From Sphingobium wenxiniae (GTDB taxonomy: Bacteria; Pseudomonadota; Alphaproteobacteria; Sphingomonadales; Sphingomonadaceae), in NCBI RefSeq assembly GCF_007830065.1, contig NZ_VLKK01000001.1, forward strand, positions 62,001-126,000: 64,000 nucleotides of DNA, written 5' to 3'. Within the stretch, counting starts at the first letter, position 1. Every line of letters begins with the position of its first letter. The translations under genes were made by a program, and so were the position numbers. The notes beneath the pieces were generated by a model. The model did not search any database and had not been told where the DNA came from. It saw only the letters and a list, made by a program, of their open reading frames with translations. Of this stretch, positions 3,583 to 51,134 are shown piece by piece.

Positions 3583-4285
3583 GGCCCAGCATCGCTTCCA
3601 CGATCGGGATGGCGCGCGGCGTGCCGACGTCGAACCACAATCCCTGATGGGAAACGCCATGGAGCCGCCCGGCCTCCATGGCGCGGTTCCAGAAGATATT
3701 GGTGGAAAAGACATCGGACGGCGGATCGGCCAGCAGGGCGGGCGACATGATCTGCACGCCGGTGAAGACAAAGGGCGCGACATGGGCGGGCTTGCGCCGC
3801 GTCAGCCGTCCGGTCGCATCCATGTGGAAATCGCCCGGTCCGCCATGGCAGTTGGCCCGCGCGAGCGGCACCAGCAGCAGCAGCGCATCCATGCGGGCGG
3901 GGTCCCATATGGCCTGCATGGCGCCCAGCGTTTCCTGCGGGCCGTCGATCCACAGATTGTCGCTGTTCGCGCACAGGAACGGCTTGTCGCCCAGCAGCGG
4001 CTTGGCCTTCATCAATCCCCCGCCCGTTTCCAGCAAACGGCCGCGCTCGTCGGAGATCAGATATTCCACATCGCCCTTGCGCGCCCGCAGATGCGCCTCG
4101 ACCGTGTCGGCGAGATAGTGGACGTTGACCACGACCTTCCTGATCCCGCCCGCCTCCAGCCGGTCGAGCGCGTGGTCCATCAGCGGCTTGCCCGCCACCT
4201 TGACCAGCGGCTTGGGACGGGTCGCGGTCAGCGGTCGCATCCGCTTGCCCAGCCCCGCCGCCATCAGCATCGCGGTGTCGATCAT
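3575..4285 (-). CDS. murU: N-acetylmuramate alpha-1-phosphate uridylyltransferase (MurU)
   Basis: A nucleotidyltransferase of 236 aa that converts MurNAc-1-phosphate plus UTP to UDP-MurNAc in the peptidoglycan salvage route that bypasses de novo MurA/MurB synthesis. The N-terminus MLMAAGLGKRMRPLTATRPK is the G-x-G-x-R sugar-1-phosphate NTP-transferase loop, followed by KPLVKVAGKPLMDHAL. The start ATG overlaps the amgK stop (ATGA). Pairing with AmgK makes the MurU assignment much stronger than generic mannose-1-phosphate guanylyltransferase. It is a cytoplasmic enzyme. Confidence 0.9.
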   Translation of the reverse strand: MIDTAMLMAAGLGKRMRPLTATRPKPLVKVAGKPLMDHALDRLEAGGIRKVVVNVHYLADTVEAHLRARKGDVEYLISDERGRLLETGGGLMKAKPLLGDKPFLCANSDNLWIDGPQETLGAMQAIWDPARMDALLLLVPLARANCHGGPGDFHMDATGRLTRRKPAHVAPFVFTGVQIMSPALLADPPSDVFSTNIFWNRAMEAGRLHGVSHQGLWFDVGTPRAIPIVEAMLGHG

Positions 4286-5280
4286 GCAGGCGAGAACTCC
4301 GCCAGCGCATCATGGCGCTTTTCCGATGGAATATGGGCCGCGAACCATTCCGCCACCGGAGCCAGCGCGGGATGCGCCAGATCGCGCTCCAGCAATCCCC
4401 ACATGCGCGGCAGGAAGGACAGGTAGCGCGGCTTGCCGTCCCGTTTCCACAGGCGCGTGAAGATACCGATGATCTTCGCGTTCCGCTGCGCCCCCAGCAC
4501 CGCATAGGCGGCGTCGAAATCCTCCGGCGGCGCGGCCAGGTCGCGGTAGAGCGCCAGCATATCCGCCTCCAGCTCCGGCGGCACGTCCCGCCGCGCGTCC
4601 TGCAACAGCGACACCAGGTCATAGGCCGGATGTCCCGCCAGCGCGTCCTGGAAATCGAGCAGCCCCAGCCCCCGCGCCGAAGGCCGGTCGATCAGCATGA
4701 TGTTTTCCGCATGATAGTCCCGCAGGACCGTCACGACCGGGCTGGCCGCCCCTTCGACCAGCGGCAGCACCGCGTCCCATGCGCGGGCATAGCCCGCCGC
4801 GTCGGCCTCGATCCCCGCCGCCGGGCAATACCATTCGGTCAGCAGCCCCGCTTCCCGCTGATACACCGCCCGGTCATAGGGCGGCACGGACGCGGCGGGC
4901 CGCTTGTGCAGGTCGGCGAGCAGCGCGATGGCGCGCGCATAGACGTCCCGTTCCTCGCCGGGATGATCCTCCACATATTCCTTGACCCGGACGTCGCCGA
5001 AATCCTCGATCAGGACCAGCCCTTCGTCCAGATCGCGCGCAAGGATCGCGGGCGCGGCGAACCCTTCTCCCAGCAGATGCTCGGCAAGGGCGATGAAGGG
5101 GCGCGGGTCTTCATGCGGCGGCGGCGCATCCATCAGCACGGCCCGGCGCGAACCGTCGACCACGCGGAAATAGCGCCGGAAGGACGCGTCGCCCGCAAGC
5201 GGCACGATCGCGCCGCCGCCCCATCCCACGCGCTTCAGGAAGCCGGGCGCGGCGGGGGGCGGGATCATATCTGTGGCCAT
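4282..5280 (-). CDS. amgK: N-acetylmuramate/N-acetylglucosamine anomeric kinase (AmgK)
   Basis: A sugar kinase of 332 aa with the aminoglycoside-phosphotransferase fold. It phosphorylates the anomeric carbon of recycled MurNAc/GlcNAc and feeds MurU. Visible elements are PLAGDASFRRYFRV (nucleotide loop), VLMDAPPPHED (lysine-poor strand typical of AmgK), the catalytic loop VLRDYHAENIML (Brenner H-x-D-like DYH..N) and LLDFQDALAGHPAYDLVSLL (metal-binding D). The start MATDMIPPPAAPGF was chosen because it overlaps the 3' end of tsaE by 16 nt; a longer open frame upstream would fully overlay tsaE. Confidence 0.9.
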   Translation of the reverse strand: MATDMIPPPAAPGFLKRVGWGGGAIVPLAGDASFRRYFRVVDGSRRAVLMDAPPPHEDPRPFIALAEHLLGEGFAAPAILARDLDEGLVLIEDFGDVRVKEYVEDHPGEERDVYARAIALLADLHKRPAASVPPYDRAVYQREAGLLTEWYCPAAGIEADAAGYARAWDAVLPLVEGAASPVVTVLRDYHAENIMLIDRPSARGLGLLDFQDALAGHPAYDLVSLLQDARRDVPPELEADMLALYRDLAAPPEDFDAAYAVLGAQRNAKIIGIFTRLWKRDGKPRYLSFLPRMWGLLERDLAHPALAPVAEWFAAHIPSEKRHDALAEFSPA

Positions 5281-5723
5281 CGCTCTTTCCAATCGTCGGG
5301 AAGCTCCGCTGTCAAGCGCCGTCCGCCATCGGCCCGCGCCTCTATACGCAGCCGCAGGGCATGGGGCCACAGCGCATCGCCCAGCCGCTCCGGCCATTCG
5401 ATGATGAGCAGGCTGTCCATCAGATAATCGTCCAGCCCGAGTTCCGCCGCCTCCGCCGGATCGTCGATGCGGTAGAGATCGACATGCGTGACGGGCAGCC
5501 GCACTTCGGGAACGTCATAGGGCTGGACGAGCGCGAAACTGGGGCTGGGCGCTTCCCCTTCCAGTCCCAGCGCTTCCAATATGCCCCGCGCCAATGTGGT
5601 TTTGCCGGCCCCCAGCCCGCCTTCCAGCGCGATGACGTCGCCGATGCGGACCTGGCCTGCTATGGCGCGGCCCATTTCCAGCATGGCGTCCTCATCGGGC
5701 AGGGTGACGGCTTCCTCAGCCAC
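5265..5723 (-). CDS. tsaE: tRNA threonylcarbamoyladenosine biosynthesis ATPase TsaE
   Basis: A P-loop ATPase of 152 aa that, with TsaB and TsaD, installs the t6A37 modification on ANN-decoding tRNAs. It shows Walker A GGLGAGKTTLARG (about residues 34-46), the family stretch SPSFALVQPY, HVDLYRIDDP and IIEWPERLG. The start is GTG (VAEEAVTLPDE), overlapping the divL stop as GTGGCTGA; a longer upstream ATG would overlap divL by 74 nt and adds residues with no family resemblance. The size is normal for TsaE (about 150 aa). Confidence 0.92.
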   Translation of the reverse strand: MAEEAVTLPDEDAMLEMGRAIAGQVRIGDVIALEGGLGAGKTTLARGILEALGLEGEAPSPSFALVQPYDVPEVRLPVTHVDLYRIDDPAEAAELGLDDYLMDSLLIIEWPERLGDALWPHALRLRIEARADGGRRLTAELPDDWKERWPQI

Positions 5724-8064
5724 GGGGCAGTTCCATGACCGCCATGGTGCCCTGCCCCGGTTCGGAAACAAGCTGGAACGTGCCGCCATGCGCTTCCGTC
5801 AATTGCCTGGCGAGCGGCAGACCGATGCCTGCCTTCCCGCCATTGCGCGCCTGTTCGGATCGCGCCGCCGGATCGAAGATCGTCGCCTGCCGCTTCGGGG
5901 CGATGCCGGGTCCGTTGTCCGACACCACCAGCCGCGCCTTGTCCGCGCCGCCATCGCCGTGCAGCAGGACCCGCGCGCCCTTGCCGCAATAGAGCACCGC
6001 ATTTTCAAGCAGATGGTCCAGCGCCTGCCCGATGCGGCGCGCGTCGCCCTGCACCGTGCCCAACGTGTCCTGGAGGGAAATCGCCAGGTCTATCCCCTTG
6101 GCCCTTGCCGCCTGCCCGATTCGCTCCGCGCTTTCCCGCGCCAGCGCGGTCAGGTCCACCGGCGCCTGTTCGATGGAAAGCGTTCCCGCTTCCCCCTGGG
6201 TCAGGTCCAGCACATTGTCGATCATCATCGACAGGCGGGACGTGCTCTGGAGGATGCCGTCGACATAGTCCTTCGCCGCTTCGCTAAGGTCCCCGGCATA
6301 GCCCGCGCTCATCATCTGGGCGAACCCGGATATGGTGGTAAGGGGGGTGCGCAGTTCATAGCTCATATTGGCGACGAAGGCGGTCTTGACCTTGTCCGCC
6401 TGCTCCAGCGCCTCGTTGCGGTCGCGCAGGATCTGCTCCACCCGGCGGCTGTCGGTCACATCCAGCATGGTGAACAGCGCATTGCCGTCCGGCAGCGGAA
6501 TCGCCGCGAACTCGAATATATGGCCATCGGCGAAACCCACATGGCCCATGCGCTGCTTGCGCTCGACCGTGGCGGCCCGCACCAGTTCGCGGACCAGGTT
6601 CACCTGCTGCGGCTTGGCCAGGCGCGACTGGACCGCCTGCATCAGTTCGTCGATGCGCGGATGGGCGGCCAGCATCTCCTCAGGCAATCCCCATGTCGTC
6701 TGGAACCGGCTGTTCCACAGGCGCAGCCGCCCGTCTGACGAGAACACGCCGATCGATTCGAACAGGTTGTCGAATGTCGCGGTCCGCACCCGCAGCAGCG
6801 TGTCGCGCGCGCTCGACAACTGGACCTGTTCCGTCCGGTCCTCGAAGATCAGCAGCAACCCGCCATCGGGCAGAGGCTGGGCGTAGACGCGCAAATGCGT
6901 GCCGTCGGCCAGCAGCCAGTTTTCCTCCAGCGGATCGGGGGACAGGAACCATTCCCGCCGCTCTGAACGCCAGGCGGGAAAATCCCGGTGTTCCGGCACG
7001 CGCCGCGCATCGCGCATCTGGTCGAGAACCCGTTCGAACAACGGACCGTCGCCCAGCCGATCCTGATCGAGACCGAACAGGCTGATGAAAGGCTGGTTCC
7101 AGAAACGCAGGGCGCGATCCGGCCCGAACCGCGCGACCCCTGCCGACAGGCGGTCCAGCAGATCGCGTTGCGCCGCCTCCAGCCGCCGGTGCTCGACCCG
7201 GGCCTGTTCCAGTTCATGCTGGTCCATGGCGAAGCCGGCGACGCCCGCCGCGCCCAGCGGCACGTCGACCACCCGCATGGTCCTGCGTTCCCCGTCGATG
7301 GTGGCGGGGATCATGCGGGCGACCGGCGCGCCTTCCGCCATGGCTTCGGCGGCGGCGTCCTGCGGCGTGATACCCCCTGCCGTCTCGACCAGTTCCGTGC
7401 CGTTTTCGATGACGTCCCGCGCGCTGCTCGCATCCACGGCGTGGACATAGGCCGCGTTGACCAGGCTTAACCGCATGTCGGGCGTGCGATGCCACATGGG
7501 GAACGGCGCGGCTTCCACCAGTCCCGCCATCGCCTGCAAGGCGTCGCGGAGCTGTTCGACCGTATCCTTCAGCGTCTCGATCTCGGTCTGGCTGTCGGTC
7601 GCGTCGAATATCCACAGGACGACCCCGCCGCTGGACGCCAGCGCCGGTCCGGCCGGAGCGCCCCTGACAAGCAGGAGCCGCGTCGAACCCACCCCGCGAA
7701 TCGGAAGCGCGAAACTTTTCCCCGCGCGCTGCGCCGCGGCGATTTCCCGCCCCAATGCCGCCGCATCGCCCGGTTCCAATCCGCCGTCTTCCGCAATCAG
7801 TTCGGACAGGAAGGCCGGGATACGATCCTTGCCAAGCCATTTGGCCAGCCGGTCGGACGCTTCCAGATGGCCGTCCGCGTGGATGATGACGGGCGCGGCG
7901 GGGGCGGACGCCAGCAGCACGGACAGGCGATCGAACTGCCCCTGCGCCTGCGTCCCTTCCCGGCGCATATGATAGCCGTTCCTCAGCGCCCAGATCGCCG
8001 CGGCCAGCCAGGCCGCGAGGACGGCGCCCAACAGGACGGCCGCAAGCGGGGTCAAAGGCGTCAT
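5716..8064 (-). CDS. divL: DivL-like cell-cycle sensor pseudokinase (phospho-acceptor His replaced by Tyr)
   Basis: A membrane-anchored PAS/histidine-kinase protein of 782 aa. It has one N-terminal transmembrane segment (residues about 5-27), several PAS-like regions (about 180-280, 300-410, 430-540), a dimerisation helix and a HATPase domain. At the H-box the sequence is NMSYELRTPLTT, so the normally phosphorylated His is Tyr569, the hallmark of Caulobacter DivL, which modulates CckA and hence CtrA. N box (LDHLLENAVLY) and G1 (VSDNGPGIAP) remain, so ATP binding may be kept. It leads the leftward operon divL-tsaE-amgK-murU-addB-addA. The function in this organism is inferred from the Tyr signature and family. 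Confidence 0.9.
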   Translation of the reverse strand: MTPLTPLAAVLLGAVLAAWLAAAIWALRNGYHMRREGTQAQGQFDRLSVLLASAPAAPVIIHADGHLEASDRLAKWLGKDRIPAFLSELIAEDGGLEPGDAAALGREIAAAQRAGKSFALPIRGVGSTRLLLVRGAPAGPALASSGGVVLWIFDATDSQTEIETLKDTVEQLRDALQAMAGLVEAAPFPMWHRTPDMRLSLVNAAYVHAVDASSARDVIENGTELVETAGGITPQDAAAEAMAEGAPVARMIPATIDGERRTMRVVDVPLGAAGVAGFAMDQHELEQARVEHRRLEAAQRDLLDRLSAGVARFGPDRALRFWNQPFISLFGLDQDRLGDGPLFERVLDQMRDARRVPEHRDFPAWRSERREWFLSPDPLEENWLLADGTHLRVYAQPLPDGGLLLIFEDRTEQVQLSSARDTLLRVRTATFDNLFESIGVFSSDGRLRLWNSRFQTTWGLPEEMLAAHPRIDELMQAVQSRLAKPQQVNLVRELVRAATVERKQRMGHVGFADGHIFEFAAIPLPDGNALFTMLDVTDSRRVEQILRDRNEALEQADKVKTAFVANMSYELRTPLTTISGFAQMMSAGYAGDLSEAAKDYVDGILQSTSRLSMMIDNVLDLTQGEAGTLSIEQAPVDLTALARESAERIGQAARAKGIDLAISLQDTLGTVQGDARRIGQALDHLLENAVLYCGKGARVLLHGDGGADKARLVVSDNGPGIAPKRQATIFDPAARSEQARNGGKAGIGLPLARQLTEAHGGTFQLVSEPGQGTMAVMELPRG

Positions 8065-42019: not shown

Positions 42020-42150
42020 CGTGGGTTCTGGGGGATCGGGCAAGAGTGTTCCGGTCCCCGTTGCCGTCGCCGATAGGGCTTGCGTGAGTTGACGTCGCTC
42101 GAAAACTTTGACGCCGCGAAGCGGACTGGGAATATCTTCGATGGTTGAAC

Positions 42151-43698
42151 ATGGCAGCCGCCCTTATGGTGGCGACCATGCTCAAGACTCTCCTCGTCGC
42201 CGCCCGGGACCGAAATCGGCTCAATGAGATCATCCAGGTCGCTTCACGCTTCGGCCTGGGCGTTCTGCTGGCGAAACTAGGTATCGAAAGCAGCGATGCC
42301 GCAGGAGGAGTCGGCAGCGCGCCGCAGAGGCTGCCACATCGGACGAGGCTCGCGCTCGAGGCGCTCGGTCCGACCTTCGTCAAACTCGGCCAGATCCTCG
42401 CGACACGCGGCGACCTGCTGCCGCCTGAATGGATTGCGGAGTTCGAACGGCTGCACAGCCAGGCGCCTACCCTGCCCTTCGAGGATTTGCGGCCTGCTGT
42501 CGAGGAGGCGCTCGGCCAACCGCCCGAATCCGCATTCGCCAGTTTCGATCCGGAGCCTATCGCGGCGGCGTCGATGGCGCAGGTTCATCGCGCGACCCTT
42601 GCCGATGGCCGGCCGGTCGTCCTCAAGATCAGACGTCCCGGCATTCGTCCGCGGATGGAAGCCGACCTCCGTCTGATCGCGCAGCTCGCGGCACTTGCCG
42701 AGCGCGCCAGCGCGGAGACGCGGCGTTTCGAGCCGGCCGCGATGATGCGGCAGCTTGCCGAGGCGATTCTGGAGGAACTCGATTTCACTAGCGAAGGGCG
42801 CAATGCCGAACGGCTTCGCGCTGATTTCGCACGCGAGCCGCGCGTCGTCGTGCCGGAAATTCATTGGGCCTGGACCTCCGAAACCCTTCTGGTCATGGAT
42901 TATGTCAACGGCGTGCCGCCGCGCGACGCGCAAACGCTCCGCGCCGCCGGCATCGATCCCACCGCGATCGCCGACCTGGGCGCCGATGTCGTGCTGGACA
43001 TGGTACTCATCAATGGCCGTTTCCATGGCGATCCGCATCCGGGCAACCTCCTGTGTCTGCCCGGCAACCGGATCGCCTTGCTCGACCTTGGTATGCTCGG
43101 CCATGTGTCGCCCCGCCGGCGCGAGGAGTTCATCGACTTCGTCCAGGCGCTCTCGAATGGCGATCCGGCGCGTCTCGCCGATGTCCTCGCCGTCTGGTCG
43201 CGAGGCAGCGGCGTTCCGGGCGATCGTATCCAAAGCGCCGCCGAGCGGCTGACCGCGCGGTATGGTGGCGGACGCCTCGTGCTGAGCGCGATGGTCGCCG
43301 ACTTCCTGTCGCTGATGCGCGACGAAGGCATGACGATGCCGCCGGACCTGCTACTAATCTTCAAGGCCCTCGTCACGGTCGACGGCGTCCTCTCCGGCAT
43401 CGAGCCAGATTTCGATCTGTCGCGGGCCATGCAGCGCGCCTCGATCCGGATCGCTGCCTCTCGCCTTTCTCCCGACCATTGGGCGCCGATTCTGCGAGCG
43501 CTGGCATGGGAAGCCGGCAAGCTCCGCGATGATGCGCCGCGCTTGTTGCGGGTCGCGATCCGTCGCCTCGAAGATGATCCTGCGAACAATGCCATGCGGC
43601 AGGAGCAAATTGCGGCATTACGATCGGCCAGCCGCTGGATCACCGGCGCTCTGCTTGTCGGAGCGGCGATGGTCGCTGGCGCTATCCTGCTCTCCTAG
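42151..43698 (+). CDS. ABC1/AarF/UbiB-family atypical kinase
   Basis: A protein of 515 aa with the UbiB hallmark KLGQ (in FVKLGQILATRGDLL, near residue 80), the alanine-rich nucleotide loop AAASMAQVHRATL, an invariant Lys in PVVLKIRRPG, catalytic HGDPHPGNLL and a DFG-like LLDLGML. One hydrophobic segment closes the C-terminus (TGALLVGAAMVAGAILL), suggesting membrane anchoring as in UbiB/COQ8. Relatives support ubiquinone synthesis as ATPases. As an apparent extra paralogue in an accessory region, its lipid or quinone partner is unknown. Its end overlaps the convergent permease gene by 17 nt. Confidence 0.9.
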   Translation: MAAALMVATMLKTLLVAARDRNRLNEIIQVASRFGLGVLLAKLGIESSDAAGGVGSAPQRLPHRTRLALEALGPTFVKLGQILATRGDLLPPEWIAEFERLHSQAPTLPFEDLRPAVEEALGQPPESAFASFDPEPIAAASMAQVHRATLADGRPVVLKIRRPGIRPRMEADLRLIAQLAALAERASAETRRFEPAAMMRQLAEAILEELDFTSEGRNAERLRADFAREPRVVVPEIHWAWTSETLLVMDYVNGVPPRDAQTLRAAGIDPTAIADLGADVVLDMVLINGRFHGDPHPGNLLCLPGNRIALLDLGMLGHVSPRRREEFIDFVQALSNGDPARLADVLAVWSRGSGVPGDRIQSAAERLTARYGGGRLVLSAMVADFLSLMRDEGMTMPPDLLLIFKALVTVDGVLSGIEPDFDLSRAMQRASIRIAASRLSPDHWAPILRALAWEAGKLRDDAPRLLRVAIRRLEDDPANNAMRQEQIAALRSASRWITGALLVGAAMVAGAILLS

Positions 43699-44800
43699 GC
43701 GCGGCGGGCGCGCTGTAACGCACGAACGCGATCGTTCCATAGAGCAGCAGCAGCCCGCAAAGATTGAACAGCTCGCCCTTCTGTTCGGCCAGGCTCGCGC
43801 CCATCTGGTTGATCCCGACCATGAGATGGATGCCCGGTGTCGTGGGCAGCAGCCGGGCGAGCATTGCCAGCCAGCCGGGCGTCGCTTCCACCGGCCAGGA
43901 CAGGCCGGAGAGGAAGTAGATCGGCACCGACGTGATGATCCAGAGCTGGATCGGCCTCTCGCGCAGGTCGAAAACGCTCGCAAGGGCAAGCGCCGCCGCG
44001 ACCGTGGCCGCGACGAACAGTGCAGCGGCAAGCATCAGCGCGCCGATGCTGCCGCTCGCACGCGGCATATCCTGGAACCAGAAGACGAACCCGGTATAAT
44101 AGGCGACGTTCGCGCAGCCCACGACGAAGAAAGCAAGACCGATGCCGAGCAAGCCGCCGGGACTGAAGGCCAGCGCGCCCTGCCTCTCGCGCATGGTCGC
44201 CGCGAGCAGGGCCAGCCCCATGAGCAGCGTCTGATGGATGATGAGGAAGGTGACACCCGGGAACACCGTGCTGCCATAGCCTTCGCGCGTATTGAACAGC
44301 GGCCGCTGGATCAAGGCGAGCGGCGGCGGTGCGGGCGCGCCCAGGGCCATGGCCTGGCTGGTCGCCGAGTCTCGGCCGACAGCGCCCAGGGCCGCGCCGA
44401 CACCAGCGAGCGCGGTGCTGCTGCGCAGCAGATAGGCCCCGTTCCCGTAGAGCGCGACTGTCCCCTGCTCGCCCCGCAGGATGTGCCGCTCGAACCCTTC
44501 GGGGATGACCACTACAGCGCTGGCGCGGCGATCCGCGATCCAAGCCAGCGCGGCGTCCTGCGAGACCGTGCGCGCGACGACTTCGGCCTGCTGAAGCGCT
44601 GAGAGCTTGTGCACCAGCGACCGGCTTGCGCCGCTATGGTCCATGTCGACGACGGCGATCGCAATGCGGGTCGGCACCTCGCCCGAATAGGCGCTGGGAT
44701 AGAAGAAGGAATAGAGGATCGCCGATCCGATGAGCAGCATCAGCGCGGTGCTGTCGGTCAGGATCAACCGGAAGGTTGCAAGGAATGCCCGCCCGATCAT
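43682..44800 (-). CDS. ABC-2 type permease, second subunit (YhhJ/YbhR-like)
   Basis: A membrane protein of 372 aa. One N-terminal helix (about residues 18-38, LTDSTALMLLIGSAILYSFF) precedes a large periplasmic domain (about 40-175) and five or six C-terminal helices; SVPIYFLSGLSWPVEATPGW is the typical ABC-2 exporter motif. Members transport drugs or other compounds with HlyD and TolC partners. The ATG overlaps the stop of the other permease gene (ATGA). The upstream permease and this one presumably form the heterodimeric membrane channel. No ATP-binding subunit gene is adjacent. Confidence 0.9.
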   Translation of the reverse strand: MIGRAFLATFRLILTDSTALMLLIGSAILYSFFYPSAYSGEVPTRIAIAVVDMDHSGASRSLVHKLSALQQAEVVARTVSQDAALAWIADRRASAVVVIPEGFERHILRGEQGTVALYGNGAYLLRSSTALAGVGAALGAVGRDSATSQAMALGAPAPPPLALIQRPLFNTREGYGSTVFPGVTFLIIHQTLLMGLALLAATMRERQGALAFSPGGLLGIGLAFFVVGCANVAYYTGFVFWFQDMPRASGSIGALMLAAALFVAATVAAALALASVFDLRERPIQLWIITSVPIYFLSGLSWPVEATPGWLAMLARLLPTTPGIHLMVGINQMGASLAEQKGELFNLCGLLLLYGTIAFVRYSAPAAPRRAG

Positions 44801-45984
44801 TGCCGCCCCCAGACTCCGGGCGTCGTGGCCGCCGCGATGTAGCGCGGCAGTCCGATCCCCGAGCCGACGAACAGGAAGATCAACAGGACCAGGATATGGG
44901 GAAGCGAGACCATGGCTGGCGATCCCATCATCCATTGTTCGGCAAGCAGCTTGGCGAAGGCGGTATAGGGCAGAATCGCGCTCCAGACCTGTGCGAAGAG
45001 CGAGGCGGACTCGATCGGGAAGATGGCTCCGGCGAAGGCGAACGACGCCCCCGCATAAAGCCCCGCGATGGACAGCGACTTGCCCATCGAGAGGGTGAGG
45101 CCGGTCACCAGCAGGGTAACGCCGACATAGGCGAGATACATGGCCGCATAGCCCGCAAGCAGCATGACCGGGCTTCCGAGCACCGGCCATCCGCGAAGTC
45201 CGGCGAGATAGCTGGTCGCCAGCAAGGCCCAGCCCATGAAGATGACGACATAGACGCTGACCTTGCCAGCGATGGCCGCCACGGCCGCGAACCGGGATGC
45301 GCCAGCAAGCCATGGCCCGATGGTTCCATCGCGCAGTTCACGGCCGAGTGCGCTCGCCACCGCGACCATGAAGATGAGATGGAGGAGCGCGGGATGGATC
45401 AGCGCCACCAGTTGCAGCTCATAGCTGCCTTGCGGATTGAACAGGATCGTGGTCCGCGCGGCGATGGGCGGCGCACGCACCTTGCCCGGTAGGATCGCGG
45501 CTGTGCGGTCCTTGGCGATCCGGCCCGCATAGTCCTGCACCACGGTGCCGATCTCGCGCAGCGCCGCACCCGACGCCGTCGAATAGCTCGCATTGTAGAA
45601 GACGGTGATGCTGGCGGTCTGGCCCCGCAGGACGGTGCGTTCGGTATCGCGAGGGATCAGCACAACGGCATAGGCGGCCTTCGAGCGCACGGCCGTTTCC
45701 GCCGTGCGCATGTCCGCCGCCCGGACCGCGACATGCAGGCCCGGCGATGCCTCGAGCCGGCGGACAAGCTCCCGGGCGACGCCGCCGCCATCCTCGTCGA
45801 CGACCGCGATAGGCAGATCGCGCATCACGCCCGCCGAGATCTGGACCGCCACCAGCGTCATCAGCGCCAGCGGTATCCAGCTGATGAGGGCAAAGTCCCA
45901 GAAGTTCGACCGGAGAAAGCGGATTTCCCTGCACCATCCCGCGCGGAAGGCCGTTCCCGCCGTACCGCCCGGGCCGGGCATCAT
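44797..45984 (-). CDS. ABC-2 type permease, first subunit (YhhJ/YbhS-like)
   Basis: A membrane protein of 395 aa built like its neighbour: one N-terminal helix (FALISWIPLALMTLVAVQI), a periplasmic domain containing LPIAVVDEDGGGVARELVRR and RAYAVV-like strands, then about six helices (LIHPALLHLIFMVAVASALG, FAGAIFPIESASLFAQVWS). The start is the first of two consecutive Met codons, overlapping the hlyD stop as ATGA; the longer open frame upstream overlays hlyD. Strict overlaps throughout indicate one message. Confidence 0.9.
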   Translation of the reverse strand: MMPGPGGTAGTAFRAGWCREIRFLRSNFWDFALISWIPLALMTLVAVQISAGVMRDLPIAVVDEDGGGVARELVRRLEASPGLHVAVRAADMRTAETAVRSKAAYAVVLIPRDTERTVLRGQTASITVFYNASYSTASGAALREIGTVVQDYAGRIAKDRTAAILPGKVRAPPIAARTTILFNPQGSYELQLVALIHPALLHLIFMVAVASALGRELRDGTIGPWLAGASRFAAVAAIAGKVSVYVVIFMGWALLATSYLAGLRGWPVLGSPVMLLAGYAAMYLAYVGVTLLVTGLTLSMGKSLSIAGLYAGASFAFAGAIFPIESASLFAQVWSAILPYTAFAKLLAEQWMMGSPAMVSLPHILVLLIFLFVGSGIGLPRYIAAATTPGVWGRQ

Positions 45985-47012
45985 TGCGGCCAGTCGAACA
46001 GGACGGTCATGCCCGGCCGCAGGCCGCGCAAGGGGACGATGGGCGTCACGCGGACCTCGAAGCTCTTGATATCGAACCCGCTCGACTGGCGGGTGGCCCG
46101 CCATGTCGCGAAGTCACCCGCCGGGGCGAGATAGGTGACGCGAAAGCGCGCGCGCTGGCCGTCCAGGGCCGGGACCGTCCCGCCGATCTCCGCACCGCGT
46201 GCCAGCCCACGCAGTTGATTCTCACGCACATTGAGCGTGACCCATGGATGCGCGACATCGGTGAGCATGAAGACGGGAAAGCCCTGCGGCACCAGTTCGC
46301 CGGGCTGCGCCAGCCGCCGGCCGATCTCGCCAGCCATGGGCGCGGTCACGCGGGTTTCCTCGGCCGCGGCCTGGACTTCCGCGACCGCGCCCTTCGCCTG
46401 CTGGACCTGCCCGGTCGCCGCCGCCTTGTCCTCGCCCCGCGCACCGGCCAGCGCCTGGTCATATTGCGCGCGCGCCGCCTTGGCCGCTTCCTCGGACGCG
46501 ACCGCATTGGTGCGCGCCTCATCGCGTTTCTGTCCCGCGATCACGCCCTGCTCATAGAGGCGCTCGGTGCGCTGGTAGGTGGTCCTTGCCAGGACGGCGG
46601 CGGCTTCGGCCCGCCGCCACTGCGCCTCTGCGGCGCGAATGTCCTCGGGCCGCGCGCCATGGTCCGCCTTGTCCGCCAGCGCCTCCGCCGAGGCGAGCGC
46701 ACCACCGGCCTGCTGCGACTTCGCGGCAACCTCGGGGCTGGTCAGGGTATAGAGGAGCTGACCGGCGCGCACGGCCTGTCCCTCCTCGACGTGGAAAGCG
46801 GCGATGCGCCCCGTAACCTTGCTGGTGATGCGCACTTCATTCGCATCCACCATCCCCTGGATCTGGTCGGGCGCCGGGCGGTAGGCCAGCCACAGCCCGA
46901 TCGCCAGCAGCAGCGCGATCCCGGCCGCCACCATGATCGCCAACCGCCGGCGCTTGCCGTCCGTCTGGGCCGGTTCGCCGGTCACCGCCGTTTCCACGCT
47001 CGTTTCGGTCAC
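45981..47012 (-). CDS. HlyD-family membrane fusion protein (periplasmic adaptor)
   Basis: An adaptor of 343 aa with one N-terminal membrane helix (LAIMVAAGIALLLAIGLWLA, about residues 24-44), a biotinyl-lipoyl-like half (TGRIAAFHVEEGQAVRAGQL), a long alpha-helical hairpin rich in Ala, Glu, Gln and Lys (about 95-205), and the second lipoyl half (VTAPMAGEIGRRLAQPGELV) before a beta-barrel. It links inner-membrane permeases to TolC. The start is GTG after a strong AGGAGG, overlapping the tolC-like stop (GTGA). Confidence 0.93.
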   Translation of the reverse strand: MTETSVETAVTGEPAQTDGKRRRLAIMVAAGIALLLAIGLWLAYRPAPDQIQGMVDANEVRITSKVTGRIAAFHVEEGQAVRAGQLLYTLTSPEVAAKSQQAGGALASAEALADKADHGARPEDIRAAEAQWRRAEAAAVLARTTYQRTERLYEQGVIAGQKRDEARTNAVASEEAAKAARAQYDQALAGARGEDKAAATGQVQQAKGAVAEVQAAAEETRVTAPMAGEIGRRLAQPGELVPQGFPVFMLTDVAHPWVTLNVRENQLRGLARGAEIGGTVPALDGQRARFRVTYLAPAGDFATWRATRQSSGFDIKSFEVRVTPIVPLRGLRPGMTVLFDWPQ

Positions 47013-48373
47013 GGGACCTCCTTGTCGGCTCGGGCCAGATAATCGGGCAGGCGCTCGGCTTGCCCGCTCAGGTCGAGAAGCTGCGCGAGCGCGATGACAT
47101 AGTCGTGCGCCGCCTGGGCACGCTGGATGCGGGCGCGCGCAAACCCAAGCTCCGCGTCGATCACGTCGAGCGAAGTCGCCTGCTGTTCGCGGTAGGACAA
47201 TCGCTGGAGCCGCAGATTCTCGCCCGCTGACTCGATCGAACTGTCAAGCAGCAGGAAGCGTCGGCGTGCGGCTTCGGCCTCGTTCCATGCCTTGGTGACG
47301 CCGATCTCGATCTGCGCGCGCGCTTCCTGCAAACCGGAATTGGCTTGCAAGGCCGTCTGGCGTGCCGCCTCGACCGCCTGGGTGCGTCCCAGACCCGATG
47401 CCAGCTTGTAGCGAAGCCCGATGCCGAAGCTCCAGTCCGGATCGGTGAGCAGGGAATCGCGCCGATCGAAATTATACTGGCCAAAGCCGTAGATGGTCGG
47501 CCGCTGCTTCGATTTCTCGATCGTCACGCCCGCCTCGGCCTGAGCCTCCAGGGCGCGCAGGCGGCCCAGTTCGGGATGCGCGTCGAGCGCTTCGGCCTTG
47601 TATGTTTCCAGCGGTTCGAGGCGCTGCGAAATGACGAAGAGCGGCGTGGTGGGACGCACGCCCTGCGGCGCGCGCAGCAGGCCCGCAAGGGCGGCATTGG
47701 CGGTTTCGAGCTCGGCGATCGCTTTCTCGAAATCGCGGGCAGCGTCGTCACGCGCGACCTGTGCCTGAAGGCGCTGTGCGCGGCTGATGAACTGTTCATG
47801 CTCCAGCTTGATCGCATCAGCGACATGGCGATCCAGCCCGGCAAGCACGTCGCGCCGCACGTCAAGCGCCCTTTCGGCAAGCTGCTGGCCATAATAGGCC
47901 TGCACCAGTTGAAGCAGTTGCTTGCTGATCGCGCCTTCCTGTTCCGCCCGGGCCTGATCGAGCTGCGCCCGGGCGCCTGCCTTGGTTCCCGCGATCTGTC
48001 CCCCGGCATAGAGCGGCAGCGTTGCCGTCACGATCGGGCGGACGGCCGTTTCCTGGCGCTGGAATCGCAGAGGATCGCCTATGCCATAGGCTTGCGCGAC
48101 CGGGGCCAGCGATCCCAGCGGCAGGTAGAGGGTCTTCTGGTAATCGAGAAGCTGCGCCTCGAATTCGACTTCGGGCCGGCCAAGAGAGCGGGTCGCGCCG
48201 ACCTGGGCCTCCTTGCCGCGGACATTGGCGCTGGATGCGGCGATAGCATCGGATCGCTCCAGCAGGCGCTGTTGCGCCGCCGCATAGTCGAGCGGGATGG
48301 CCGCATTGTCCTGCGCCGTGGCGGGCGCCGACGCCGCGATTGCCGCGACTGCTATCGTCAACCGGATTCGCAT
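47009..48373 (-). CDS. TolC-family outer membrane efflux protein
   Basis: A protein of 454 aa with a signal peptide (MRIRLTIAVAAIAASAPATA, cut before QDN). It has two repeated helical halves of the TolC/OEP family: ATRSLGRPEVEFEAQLLDYQ to FEKAIAELETANAALAGLL, then LGRLRALEAQAEAGVTIEKS to the C-terminal coiled coil with LQRLSYREQQATSLDVIDAE. The start ATG directly precedes the signal peptide; a longer frame upstream overlays the SemiSWEET gene. It is the outer-membrane channel for the HlyD and permease genes that follow. Confidence 0.92.
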   Translation of the reverse strand: MRIRLTIAVAAIAASAPATAQDNAAIPLDYAAAQQRLLERSDAIAASSANVRGKEAQVGATRSLGRPEVEFEAQLLDYQKTLYLPLGSLAPVAQAYGIGDPLRFQRQETAVRPIVTATLPLYAGGQIAGTKAGARAQLDQARAEQEGAISKQLLQLVQAYYGQQLAERALDVRRDVLAGLDRHVADAIKLEHEQFISRAQRLQAQVARDDAARDFEKAIAELETANAALAGLLRAPQGVRPTTPLFVISQRLEPLETYKAEALDAHPELGRLRALEAQAEAGVTIEKSKQRPTIYGFGQYNFDRRDSLLTDPDWSFGIGLRYKLASGLGRTQAVEAARQTALQANSGLQEARAQIEIGVTKAWNEAEAARRRFLLLDSSIESAGENLRLQRLSYREQQATSLDVIDAELGFARARIQRAQAAHDYVIALAQLLDLSGQAERLPDYLARADKEVP

Positions 48374-48405
48374 TGCCCGCCTCCCCTGGTCCTTTGCGGC
48401 AAGGG

Positions 48406-48681
48406 TCAAAGCGCGGTGGCGAAGGCGACTGCCCCCAGGACGATACCCGGCCCGTTCGCGATCACGATCGGCCAATCCTTTTTCTCGCGCAGAAAGCCAT
48501 AGGCCACCCATAAGGAGCAGTTCATGAATGTCGCGCCGGGCTGGATCAGCGAACCCTTCTGGCCCGCCAGGTTCAGGCGGATTTGATCGAGATAGGACAT
48601 ATACATGGCGACCGCGGTGGCGGATGCGATCCAGCCCAGGATGTGCAGCCCGCGATCGCTCATTATCCAATGCCTTGCCAT
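48406..48681 (-). CDS. SemiSWEET-like small sugar carrier (PQ-loop family)
   Basis: A protein of 91 aa with three transmembrane helices: LHILGWIASATAVAMYMSYL, a middle helix (PGATFMNCSLWVAYGFL) and the last (DWPIVIANGPGIVLGAVAFA). The N-P-G arrangement in ANGPGIVLG and the MYMSYLDQIRLN end of helix 1 fit SemiSWEET proteins, which dimerise into one sugar uniporter. The ATG 6 nt after AAGGGG is preferred over a GTG two codons earlier. It lies 62 nt after the glucose dehydrogenase gene and 32 nt before tolC, same strand. Confidence 0.8.
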   Translation of the reverse strand: MARHWIMSDRGLHILGWIASATAVAMYMSYLDQIRLNLAGQKGSLIQPGATFMNCSLWVAYGFLREKKDWPIVIANGPGIVLGAVAFATAL

Positions 48682-48743
48682 TTTCACCCCTTCATTGTCG
48701 CAACCGCCACCGCGCGATCGCCCTTATTATGGTTCATTCTGCT

Positions 48744-51134
48744 TCACGGCCGCTTCGATGGCAGTCCATAAGCGATGACATGATCGCCCGGCTTCGTCCC
48801 CAGCGATCCATGCCCGCCTGCCACCACCACGACCAGTTGCCGCCCGCCGGGCGTGCGGTAGCTCATCGGCGAAGCCTGCCCGCCAGCGGGCAGCCGCGCA
48901 CGCCACAGCACCGCGCCGGTGCGCACATCATAGGCCCGGACATAATTGTCGATCGCCGAGGACATGAAGGCCACACCGCCCCCCGTGGTCAGCGGCCCGC
49001 CCAGCGAGGGCACGCCAAGCTTGAAGGGAAGCGGCAGGGGCGTCTCGTCACGGATCGTCCCGTTCTTGCGCTGCCAGACCGTCTTGCCGGTGGTGAGGTC
49101 GATCCCCGCGACATAGCCCCATGGCGGCTGCTGGCAGGGAATGCCGGTGAAGGACAGGAACGGGTTCATGTCCACCGCGAAGGGCGCGCCGTGATTGGGG
49201 CTGTAGCCGCTCTCCTTCGCGCCGCCACGATCCGACCCGCTGGCAAGCCCGGTGGCGCGGCGGAGGTCGCCCGCCTCCCCCTTGGGGATCAGCCGGTCGA
49301 CGAAAGCCATGTAATTGGGATGGGCGAACAATATCTGGCGGCTGGGATCGACCGAGATGCCACCCCAGTCCATCACCCCGAAATTGCCGGGAAACACCAG
49401 TGATCCCTTCAACGACGGCGGCGTGAACGGCCCGTCATAGCGCAGCGAGCGGAAGCGGATGCGGCACCAGAGCTGGTCGACCATTGTCGCGCCCCACATC
49501 TCGCTTTCCTTCGCCTTCCATGGCATCAGCGAAACGGCGGAGAAGGGCTGGGTCGGCGACAGCCGGTCCCCCGGTGCAGGACCGCCGGGCACCGGGCGTT
49601 CCGTCACCGGATAGAGCGGCGCGCCGCTCCGCCGGTCGAGTATGAAGATATTGCCGGTCTTGGTCGACTGGATCAGCGCGGGCACCCGGCCGCGCCCCGG
49701 CAGGGTGAGGTCGACCAGCACAGGCTGCGCGGGGACATCCATGTCCCACACGTCATGATGGACGGTCTGGAAATGCCAGCGCGGCTTACCGGTCGCGAGG
49801 TCGAGCGCGAGGATCGTGGTCGCGAAACGCTCGGTCGTCTCCGGCCGCTTGCCGCCCCATTGATCGACCGCGCCCATGCCCATCGGGAAATAGGCAAGGC
49901 CCAGCTTTTCATCCGCTGCGGGCGTGCTCCAGCTATTGGGCGAGGAGGGCGTATAATGTTTGCCTTCCGCGAGCGGGGTGGTGTCATCCGGATTGCCCGG
50001 ATCGAAGTTCCACATCAGCTTGCCGCTCACCGCGTCATAGGCGCGGATCACGCCCGACGGCACATGCGTCGAGATATCGTCGAACACCGCGCCGCCCAGG
50101 ATCGCGAGGCCATGCGCCACAAGGGGCGCGGAGGTCGCCTGATACCAGCCACCATTATAGTCGGTCAGACCCGCGAGCAGACTGACCGTCCCGCCCGCGC
50201 CGAAGCCCGGACAAAGCTTGCCCGTATGCGCGTCGAGCGCGATCAGGCGCGAATCGTTGGTCGCCAGCAGGATGCGCTGCGGGCAATCGGCGGTGGCTTT
50301 CCCGGCCTGCGCGGCGTCATAATAGGAGACGCCGCGGCAGGTCATATGCTGCATGTCGCGCGGCGAGGTGCGGATCTTCGGATCGAACCGCCAGCGTTCC
50401 TTCCCGCTCTCCGCGTCGAGCGCGATCACCCAATTATGCGGGGTGCAAAGATAGACGAGGCCGCCGACCTTGATCGGGGTCATCTCATAGGTGAACTCGG
50501 CCGGATCGGTCGGCCGCTTCAGATCGCCAGTGCGGAACTGCCATGCGACTTCCAGCTTGTCGGCATTGGCAGGCGTGATGTCGCCCAGCGGCGACCAGCG
50601 CTCCCCGCCCCATGTGCGGGCATAGGCGGGCCAGTCACCCGCCGGAACCCCGCCATAATCCGCATCGATGGCGATGGGCGCGCTCGAAATCTCACCCCTC
50701 AATTCATGCGTCGTGGCGAATAGGGAAATGGCGCCATAAACGGCCGCGACTGCGAGACTGACGGTCAGTGGCCATGTCGCCCGCCACCAGCGCTCGCCGG
50801 GCCGCAAGCGCCGCACTGTCGCAGGCAGCAGCAACGCCGCGCCCATCAAGAAGATCAGGTCGCCGCGCGGCACCAGCGGCCACCAGTCGAAACCGATCTC
50901 CGCCCATGCCCAGATGACGGTGGCCAGCACCAGCAGCGCGAACAGGGGAAGGACAAACGGATTGCGCTTCCACAGCAGTGCGGCGGACGCGAGCAGCGCC
51001 GCCCCGACGACCGCGTAGAACCAGCTTCCTCCCAGCACGACCAGCCAGACACCGCCTGCCAGAAGGATCGCGGCGATCAACCCGAAGGTCAGTGCCAATG
51101 CGATAATCCAACGAGTTCTTGGCGACGCGCTCAT
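48744..51134 (-). CDS. gcd: Membrane-bound PQQ-dependent glucose/quinate/shikimate-type dehydrogenase
   Basis: A quinoprotein of 796 aa. The first ~145 residues form five hydrophobic helices (LALTFGLIAAILLAGGVWL and onwards), the quinone-reducing anchor; the rest is the eight-bladed PQQ propeller in the periplasm (DWPAYARTWGGERWSPLGDI, WAWAEIG, PDPNYMAFVD-like, and the C-terminal VVVAGGHGSLGTKPGDHVIA). It oxidises a sugar such as glucose to the lactone and passes electrons to ubiquinone. No pqq biosynthesis gene is in view. It probably heads the leftward operon with SemiSWEET, tolC, hlyD and two permeases. Which substrate is used is inferred from family only. Confidence 0.93.
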   Translation of the reverse strand: MSASPRTRWIIALALTFGLIAAILLAGGVWLVVLGGSWFYAVVGAALLASAALLWKRNPFVLPLFALLVLATVIWAWAEIGFDWWPLVPRGDLIFLMGAALLLPATVRRLRPGERWWRATWPLTVSLAVAAVYGAISLFATTHELRGEISSAPIAIDADYGGVPAGDWPAYARTWGGERWSPLGDITPANADKLEVAWQFRTGDLKRPTDPAEFTYEMTPIKVGGLVYLCTPHNWVIALDAESGKERWRFDPKIRTSPRDMQHMTCRGVSYYDAAQAGKATADCPQRILLATNDSRLIALDAHTGKLCPGFGAGGTVSLLAGLTDYNGGWYQATSAPLVAHGLAILGGAVFDDISTHVPSGVIRAYDAVSGKLMWNFDPGNPDDTTPLAEGKHYTPSSPNSWSTPAADEKLGLAYFPMGMGAVDQWGGKRPETTERFATTILALDLATGKPRWHFQTVHHDVWDMDVPAQPVLVDLTLPGRGRVPALIQSTKTGNIFILDRRSGAPLYPVTERPVPGGPAPGDRLSPTQPFSAVSLMPWKAKESEMWGATMVDQLWCRIRFRSLRYDGPFTPPSLKGSLVFPGNFGVMDWGGISVDPSRQILFAHPNYMAFVDRLIPKGEAGDLRRATGLASGSDRGGAKESGYSPNHGAPFAVDMNPFLSFTGIPCQQPPWGYVAGIDLTTGKTVWQRKNGTIRDETPLPLPFKLGVPSLGGPLTTGGGVAFMSSAIDNYVRAYDVRTGAVLWRARLPAGGQASPMSYRTPGGRQLVVVVAGGHGSLGTKPGDHVIAYGLPSKRP

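What the first reader, a model, noticed from the sequence alone, without database searches (positions are those of the whole stretch)
43682..51134. Sugar-oxidation/export operon: gcd, SemiSWEET, TolC, HlyD and two ABC-2 permeases without an ATPase
Six leftward genes with small gaps or overlaps join a periplasmic PQQ sugar dehydrogenase, a small sugar uniporter and a tripartite export machine. Usual ybhGFSR-type operons have an ATPase between HlyD and the permeases, but here HlyD overlaps the first permease directly. The ATPase must be supplied elsewhere, or the complex works without ATP hydrolysis. It could export or handle oxidised sugar products. This set is, to my knowledge, not a described system.
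Basis: partly seen in the sequence, partly recalled or inferred. Interest (0 to 1): 0.62.

Follow-up and report, generated by a model that had tools for sequence, protein, structure and literature searches.

The report
Efflux pump lacking its ATPase
Next to an unrelated sugar-oxidising enzyme sits a four-gene export pump from a widespread bacterial family that looks like an ABC transporter but carries no ATP-burning subunit and has lost the sequence motif thought to dock one, so how it is powered is an open question.

Summary
TolC, HlyD and two ABC-2 permeases form a conserved, overlapping unit. In 67 loci of this unit neither gcd nor the SemiSWEET occurs, and this SemiSWEET was found in 1 of 99 family genomes. 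The sugar link is local.

The missing ATPase is real and marks a clade. Of 110 loci fetched, 31 with close relatives have no ATPase in the unit; 79 with remoter relatives have one. Trees need one change for this trait. A presumed ATPase-coupling motif is kept in 113 of 113 ATPase-linked permeases and in 0 of 105 of these. Of ten module-bearing genomes, five have no unpaired strong DrrA-type ATPase; the other five each have one, plus one lone PF01061 permease.

The layout is in print for H. pylori HP1489-HP1486, where an ATPase elsewhere is presumed and one Helicobacter has an ATPase in the operon (PMC9570263). I think this clade runs without an ABC ATPase (0.6). Its energy source is unknown; I found no conserved charge inside the membrane.

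The parts
47009..48373 (-). TolC-family outer-membrane channel, first gene of the four-gene exporter
   Evidence: PF02321 6.6e-36; first gene of the unit in 24 of 24 relatives
45981..47012 (-). HlyD-family periplasmic adaptor
   Evidence: PF16576/PF13437; best NCBIfam matches are HlyD PRK03598, MdtN and EmrA-type adaptors, all under their cut-offs; overlaps TolC gene by 4 nt
44797..45984 (-). ABC-2 permease 1 (P1 type), no ATPase partner; presumed coupling motif degenerate
   Evidence: PF12698 4.7e-39; AlphaFold model pLDDT 81.7, type V ABC fold; motif count
43682..44800 (-). ABC-2 permease 2 (P2 type), presumed coupling motif lost and loop shortened
   Evidence: PF12698 1.7e-35; motif and loop counts; AlphaFold model pLDDT 66.5 only
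48406..48687 (-). SemiSWEET-like small membrane protein; neighbour, not a conserved part of the exporter
   Evidence: PF03083 31.3 bits, cut-off 23.7; found in 1 of 99 family genomes; 0 of 67 module loci
48744..51134 (-). membrane-bound PQQ sugar dehydrogenase (gcd type); neighbour, not a conserved part of the exporter
   Evidence: TIGR03074 1041.7 bits, cut-off 832.65; 0 of 67 module loci

Best explanation
The finding is a fortuitous neighbourhood. Its core is a four-gene tripartite efflux module (TolC, HlyD, P1, P2) that belongs to an old, widespread clade of heterodimeric ABC-2 (type V) permeases that work without an ABC ATPase. Shown here: the gene set, its conservation, the absence of an ATPase from the unit across the clade, a single change of this trait on the tree, loss of the motif conserved in ATPase-linked relatives, a retained type V membrane fold for P1, and no obvious spare ATPase in half of the genomes examined. 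Inferred: P1 and P2 pair in the inner membrane, hand a small, probably lipophilic or amphipathic compound to HlyD, and it leaves through TolC. Inferred and least certain: transport is driven by an ion gradient or by the substrate gradient rather than by ATP.
For: 110 fetched loci: 31 of 31 with P1 matches of about 190 bits or more (plus the split hit L141) have no ATPase in the unit, 79 of 79 weaker ones have one. One change of the trait on a 220-row FastTree tree and on a 102-row IQ-TREE tree; P1 and P2 each one side of a branch. Eight-site motif between helices 2 and 3: at least 6 of 8 sites in 113 of 113 ATPase-linked rows, 0 of 52 P1, 0 of 53 P2; helix 2-3 stretch exactly 30 residues in 113 of 113, median 24 in P2. 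P1 and P2 occur as one fused protein without an ATPase domain (L053; L078, L079; L050, L059). Ten module-bearing genomes: 18 strong DrrA-type ATPases, 13 beside their own permease; the 5 unpaired ones lie in 5 genomes that each also hold one lone PF01061 permease. The window genome's only unpaired DrrA-type ATPase (L036) is present in 98 of 99 family genomes while the module was found in 8 of 99. Efflux role by analogy: hp1489 mutants are more sensitive to ethidium bromide (PMC11594842, passage); BT_2792-BT_2795 confers bile salt tolerance (PMC10994844, passage).
Against: PMC9570263 (passages) reports that in Helicobacter anseris the homologous operon holds an ABC ATPase gene and that HP0853 is an orphan orthologue, which its authors were testing as the partner. 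P1 keeps part of the motif (R 60%, E 71%, K 81%), and for P1 the excess loss at the presumed interface over other conserved columns is only borderline (p 0.050; P2 0.0007). No charged residue conserved in 80% of rows lies in the middle of a membrane helix, so an ion-coupling site is not evident. Below 240 bits further unpaired ATPases exist (9 of 25 unpaired at 200 bits), and ATPases of other classes were not excluded as partners. The motif was chosen on the same alignment on which it was counted.
Confidence: 0.6

Rival explanations
1. A shared ATPase encoded elsewhere in the genome drives P1-P2, as presumed for H. pylori HP1486/HP1487. P1 alone could dock it through its partly retained motif.
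For: PMC9570263 passages: H. anseris has an ATPase gene in the operon; HP0853 is an orphan orthologue. P1 keeps R, E and K of the motif in 60-81% of rows. The window genome has one unpaired DrrA-type ATPase, L036, and 5 of 10 module genomes have one.
Against: 5 of 10 module-bearing genomes have no unpaired ATPase at 240 bits or more, and in the other 5 a lone PF01061 permease is a simpler partner. L036 and its relatives occur in 98 of 99 family genomes, far more than the module's 8 of 99. The motif is lost in P2 and below 6 of 8 in every P1 row. No ATPase joined the unit in 31 survey loci.
Confidence: 0.27
2. The six genes form one operon that oxidises sugars in the periplasm and exports or handles the products.
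For: Same strand, gaps of 56 and 32 nt, no terminator-like site between the genes.
Against: 0 of 67 module loci have gcd or SemiSWEET; 0 of 19 other gcd loci of the genus have the SemiSWEET; the SemiSWEET was found in 1 of 99 family genomes. gcd releases its products outside the inner membrane (established knowledge), so they would not need an exporter from the cytoplasm.
Confidence: 0.06
3. P1-P2 does not transport actively; it is a gate, or a scaffold that holds HlyD and TolC, and substrates leave by diffusion from the periplasm or membrane.
For: No ATPase in the unit and no conserved charge in the middle of the membrane helices.
Against: The type V transport fold is retained in P1 and P1/P2 keep strongly conserved, group-specific residues such as the P2 tyrosines and Q190.
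Confidence: 0.12

Closest known systems
Helicobacter pylori HP1489-HP1486 (PMC9570263, abstract, outline and passages read)
   Same: Same gene make-up (TolC, adaptor, two ABC-2 permeases), no ATPase in the locus, and no clear candidate found in the genome by its authors
   Different: Its authors presume an ATPase elsewhere, and H. anseris has one in the operon. Reported effect is on flagellum stability
Bacteroides thetaiotaomicron BT_2792-BT_2795 bile salt efflux system (PMC10994844, PMC11078008, PMC12596196, PMC10434189, passages read; Liu et al. 2021 recalled, not held)
   Same: Four genes; BT2794 is a HlyD family protein; tripartite efflux. Two Bacteroidales plasmid-collection records hold the same four-gene unit (L049, L058)
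   Different: What BT_2792, BT_2793 and BT_2795 are was not tested; two of the papers group it with RND pumps
YbhG-YbhFSR / YhiI-RbbA-YhhJ type ABC-2 exporters (names recalled; RbbA from NCBIfam)
   Same: HlyD adaptor with PF12698 permeases; P1 and P2 match the permease half of the RbbA model
   Different: These carry an ATPase gene or domain and, in the relatives sampled here, the full motif; the window's unit has neither
RND and MFS tripartite pumps (AcrAB-TolC, EmrAB-TolC)
   Same: TolC plus adaptor plus inner-membrane protein, energised without an ABC ATPase
   Different: Inner-membrane component here is ABC-2, not RND or MFS

Membership tests
ABC-2 (type V) exporters of the YbhFSR/RbbA/DrrAB kind | ABC2_membrane_3 permease domain and type V fold | tested here: met
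   PF12698 for both permeases; P1 model matches ABCG2 at Z 20.4, rmsd 3.2 over 245 residues; P2 model too weak, not searched
ABC-2 (type V) exporters of the YbhFSR/RbbA/DrrAB kind | cognate ABC ATPase gene or domain in the unit | tested here: not met
   none in the window's unit nor in the unit of the 31 close-relative survey loci
ABC-2 (type V) exporters of the YbhFSR/RbbA/DrrAB kind | motif between helices 2 and 3 that is conserved in ATPase-linked permeases | tested here: not met
   at least 6 of 8 sites in 113 of 113 ATPase-linked rows, 0 of 52 P1, 0 of 53 P2; that the motif docks the ATPase is recalled knowledge
HP1489-HP1486-type four-gene unit without a linked ATPase | gene make-up TolC, adaptor, ABC-2 permease, ABC-2 permease and no ATPase in the locus | tested here: met
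   window compared with the description in PMC9570263
HP1489-HP1486-type four-gene unit without a linked ATPase | sequence orthology of the permeases with HP1486/HP1487 | not tested
   no H. pylori sequence was fetched
RND tripartite pump | RND inner-membrane transporter | tested here: not met
   Pfam and NCBIfam give ABC-2 families only for the two permeases
Membrane-bound PQQ glucose/quinate dehydrogenase | TIGR03074 above its cut-off | tested here: met
   1041.7 bits, cut-off 832.65
SemiSWEET sugar transporters | PF03083 above its cut-off and NCBIfam SemiSWEET above its cut-off | tested here: inconclusive
   PF03083 31.3 over 23.7; NF037968 20.9 under 80; sugar transport untested

The most novel reading that the evidence does not exclude
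A monophyletic, widespread branch of ABC-type (type V) membrane domains has cast off its ATPase for good and become a secondary, probably ion-coupled, transporter that powers a tripartite efflux pump: ABC fold, non-ABC energetics. Systems filed in print as RND pumps (HP1489-HP1487) or as awaiting a lost ATPase may belong to it.
Probability: 0.3. Interest if true: 0.85.

Novelty: new variant of a known kind. Interest (0 to 1): 0.58.

Why it matters
If the clade works without ATP hydrolysis, the type V ABC fold can be driven by something other than its ATPase, which bears on how ABC transporters and secondary transporters are related. A 2021 review passage counts only type I secretion ABCs and MacB-type ABCs among ABC members of tripartite assemblies (PMC8277102, passages). 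The module, or a strong P1 match, is in 27 of 299 genomes sampled from the phylum and on mobile plasmids, so many annotated 'ABC transporter permease' pairs would be misnamed. It also sharpens the question left open for H. pylori: there may be no missing ATPase to find.

Tried and rejected
Sugar-export operon: rejected on conservation. Orphan ATPase in the window genome: PF00005 gave 31 matches, 26 over the cut-off. I fetched the surroundings of the over-cut-off matches outside the window, found 22 ATPase reading frames and named 10 of the 22 with NCBIfam; one, L036, is DrrA-type without a membrane neighbour, and the genome has one PF01061 permease (C1:350583) that lies near none of the PF00005 matches. 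I take these two as a split pair (I recall E. coli YadG/YadH; no call names them so). An ATPase near the module in relatives: four were found within the fetched pieces (L079, L080, L008, L009) and look like a GlnQ-type importer ATPase, a fused type I secretion/NHLM transporter, a YejF-type importer ATPase and an MsbA-type transporter. Anti-phage role: no PADLOC match for the four exporter proteins. Solved relatives by sequence: only weak matches. A common regulator was not established: one of the loci checked (L057) has a divergent TetR gene; the other five neighbours scanned with Pfam are not regulators by their matches (one, L007, had no match). Structure of the P1-P2 pair was not predicted. 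P2's model was too weak to search.

Literature: searches with terms for ABC-2, HlyD, TolC and a missing ATPase gave one relevant paper, PMC9570263; one search listed 15 of 17 papers naming HP1486-HP1489 or HP0853, of which I looked into three (PMC9570263, PMC11594842, PMC4079918). PMC10197588 gave no passage for the terms tried. Subscription papers are mostly not held, so absence of a clade-level description is only within this library.

Limits: the survey profile was built from ATPase-free permeases only, the phylum search scored at most 6 candidates per genome, and I fetched 90 of the listed places and 20 by my own choice (G066 and G098, with strong P1 matches, were not fetched). In the trees I set aside 16 of the 24 genome-contig loci and all of L052 and L065, and relabelled by hand the L079 row, which the distance rule had called ATPase-linked, as ATPase-free. 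Two rows (L141 P2, L050 P1) were dropped; one search also dropped rows of 300 residues or fewer and was thinned at 55% identity.
Full report
What is there. On the minus strand at 43682-51134 lie gcd, a SemiSWEET-like gene, TolC, HlyD and two PF12698 permeases. The last four overlap by 4 nt at each junction. The window lies in a 4.1 Mb genome (G000) whose closest P1 relatives are Caulobacter and Sphingomonas records.

Two neighbourhoods, not one. All 24 relatives of P1 in genome contigs keep TolC-HlyD-P1-P2. Across 67 ATPase-free loci held, 56 have TolC-HlyD-P1-P2, 8 have HlyD-P1-P2 and 3 have a fused P1-P2 protein between two HlyD genes; none has gcd or SemiSWEET. The SemiSWEET was found in 1 of 99 genomes of the family at E 1e-10, and 0 of 19 other gcd loci held from the genus have it. 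The 67 loci are not all independent (at least two pairs look like the same record). The sugar-export idea therefore has only adjacency behind it.

The ATPase is missing across the clade. A profile of 21 P1 sequences was run over 299 genomes of the phylum and 99 of the family. In the phylum set 27 of 299 genomes, the window's included, have a P1 match of at least 190 bits or, in one case (G240), a split match whose locus shows the module; in the family set 8 of 99. I fetched 110 loci and marked permeases, HlyD, TolC and ABC ATPases. The 31 with strong P1 matches (30 of about 190 bits or more, plus L141, split) have no ATPase in the unit. The 79 with weaker matches have an ATPase gene beside, or fused to, the permease. 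The same unit without an ATPase is in Acinetobacter (L048, L066 by reading frames), Parabacteroides (L049), Bacteroides (L058), Prevotella (L064), Photobacterium (L063) and others. ATPase-linked remote relatives occur too (L051, L055, L056).

One change on the tree. On 220 permease rows (113 ATPase-linked, 107 not) FastTree needs one change of the trait, with P1 and P2 each one side of a branch. An IQ-TREE mixture-model tree on 102 thinned rows agrees (47, 29 and 26 rows; SH-aLRT support 100). The root is not known, so loss is inferred, not shown. The profile came from ATPase-free members, so other ATPase-free branches could have been missed.

The presumed ATPase coupling site has decayed. Between helices 2 and 3 the ATPase-linked rows share R-E-x-E-x-G-T ... 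L ... P ... E. Counting eight sites, 113 of 113 ATPase-linked rows have at least six, against 0 of 52 P1 and 0 of 53 P2 (means 7.65, 2.42, 0.87). The stretch is 30 residues in all 113, median 31 in P1 (16-42) and 24 in P2 (18-33). At the N-terminal elbow the means are 3.76, 1.54 and 1.17 of 4 sites. Over all columns conserved at 85% in ATPase-linked rows, mean retention at the 12 presumed interface columns is 0.34 (P1) and 0.17 (P2), against 0.56 and 0.63 at the 17 others; one-sided p 0.050 and 0.0007. So the case is clear for P2 and borderline for P1. The sites were picked from the same alignment, and that this region couples to the ATPase is established knowledge of type V transporters, not tested here. 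In the models P1 keeps a short helix (222-226) between helices 188-219 and 231-263, and P2 has six residues between helices 179-207 and 214-243 (P2 model weak).

Fold. P1's model (pLDDT 81.7) matches ABCG/ABCA/ABCH transporters: ABCG2 at Z 20.4, rmsd 3.2 over 245 residues; ABCH-9C at Z 20.5, rmsd 10.4 over 355. A shared fold does not show function.

Is an ATPase lent from elsewhere? In ten module-bearing genomes, chosen by me, there are 18 strong (240 bits or more) DrrA-type ATPases; 13 lie within 1.5 kb of a permease. The 5 unpaired ones are in five genomes that each also hold one lone PF01061 permease; the other five genomes have none. Four of those five ATPases are relatives of L036, the window genome's own unpaired one, which is in 98 of 99 family genomes. 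Other ATPase classes were not excluded.

What is in print. PMC9570263 (abstract, outline and passages) describes H. pylori HP1489-HP1486 with this make-up, notes that no ATPase gene is in the locus, presumes one elsewhere and found no clear candidate. It also says that the H. anseris operon contains an ATPase and that HP0853 is an orphan orthologue. This is the strongest published point against my reading. PMC11594842 (passages) files HP1489-HP1487 as RND and cites ethidium sensitivity of hp1489 mutants; PMC4079918 (passages) lists it among TolC-homologue efflux clusters. BT_2792-BT_2795 of B. thetaiotaomicron is a bile salt efflux system (PMC10994844, passages), grouped with RND pumps in PMC11078008 and PMC12596196 (passages); BT2794 is a HlyD family protein (PMC10434189, passage). 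Whether these belong to the same clade is untested.

How it most likely works. P1 and P2 pair in the inner membrane (inferred from their constant pairing and natural fusions), HlyD bridges to TolC, and a lipophilic or amphipathic compound is expelled (inferred from the H. pylori and Bacteroides phenotypes). No ABC ATPase takes part (inferred, 0.6). The driving force is open. Charges conserved in 80% of rows are at the elbow, in the periplasmic part and at helix ends, not mid-membrane, so ion coupling, if it exists, does not use an obvious buried acid.

Verdict. The exporter is a new variant of a known kind: ABC-2 tripartite exporters, in a clade without the ATPase. The gcd-SemiSWEET part is ordinary and incidental.

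Noticed in passing
L053 3901-8247, L078 3861-8282, L079 1219-5676: P1 and P2 are fused into one protein of about 780 residues and flanked by two HlyD genes, with no TolC gene found beside them.
   Followed up: partly
L059 2813-6011, L050 493-7244: Enterobacterial plasmids carry an adaptor gene and a fused permease pair amid insertion sequences; in L050 a group II intron reverse-transcriptase gene lies between the two.
   Followed up: no
L036 3462-4427 and G000:C1:350583-351215: A DrrA-type ATPase without a membrane neighbour is present in 98 of 99 family genomes; a lone PF01061 permease lies elsewhere, which suggests a split ABC-2 pair.
   Followed up: partly
PMC11594842, PMC11078008, PMC12596196: Papers group HP1489-HP1487 and BT_2792-BT_2795 with RND pumps, although HP1486/HP1487 are ABC-2 proteins according to PMC9570263.
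   Followed up: partly
L020, L021, L022 about 3550-6390, minus strand: Next to the intact module lie shorter, broken-looking reading frames related to P1, P2 and TolC on the opposite strand.
   Followed up: no
window 43682-43698: The end of permease 2 overlaps the end of a convergent ABC1-kinase (UbiB-like) gene at 42145-43698 by 17 nt.
   Followed up: no
G000:C8:26390-28759 and G000:C31:7323-8951: The genome holds two further gcd-like matches besides the one in the window.
   Followed up: no
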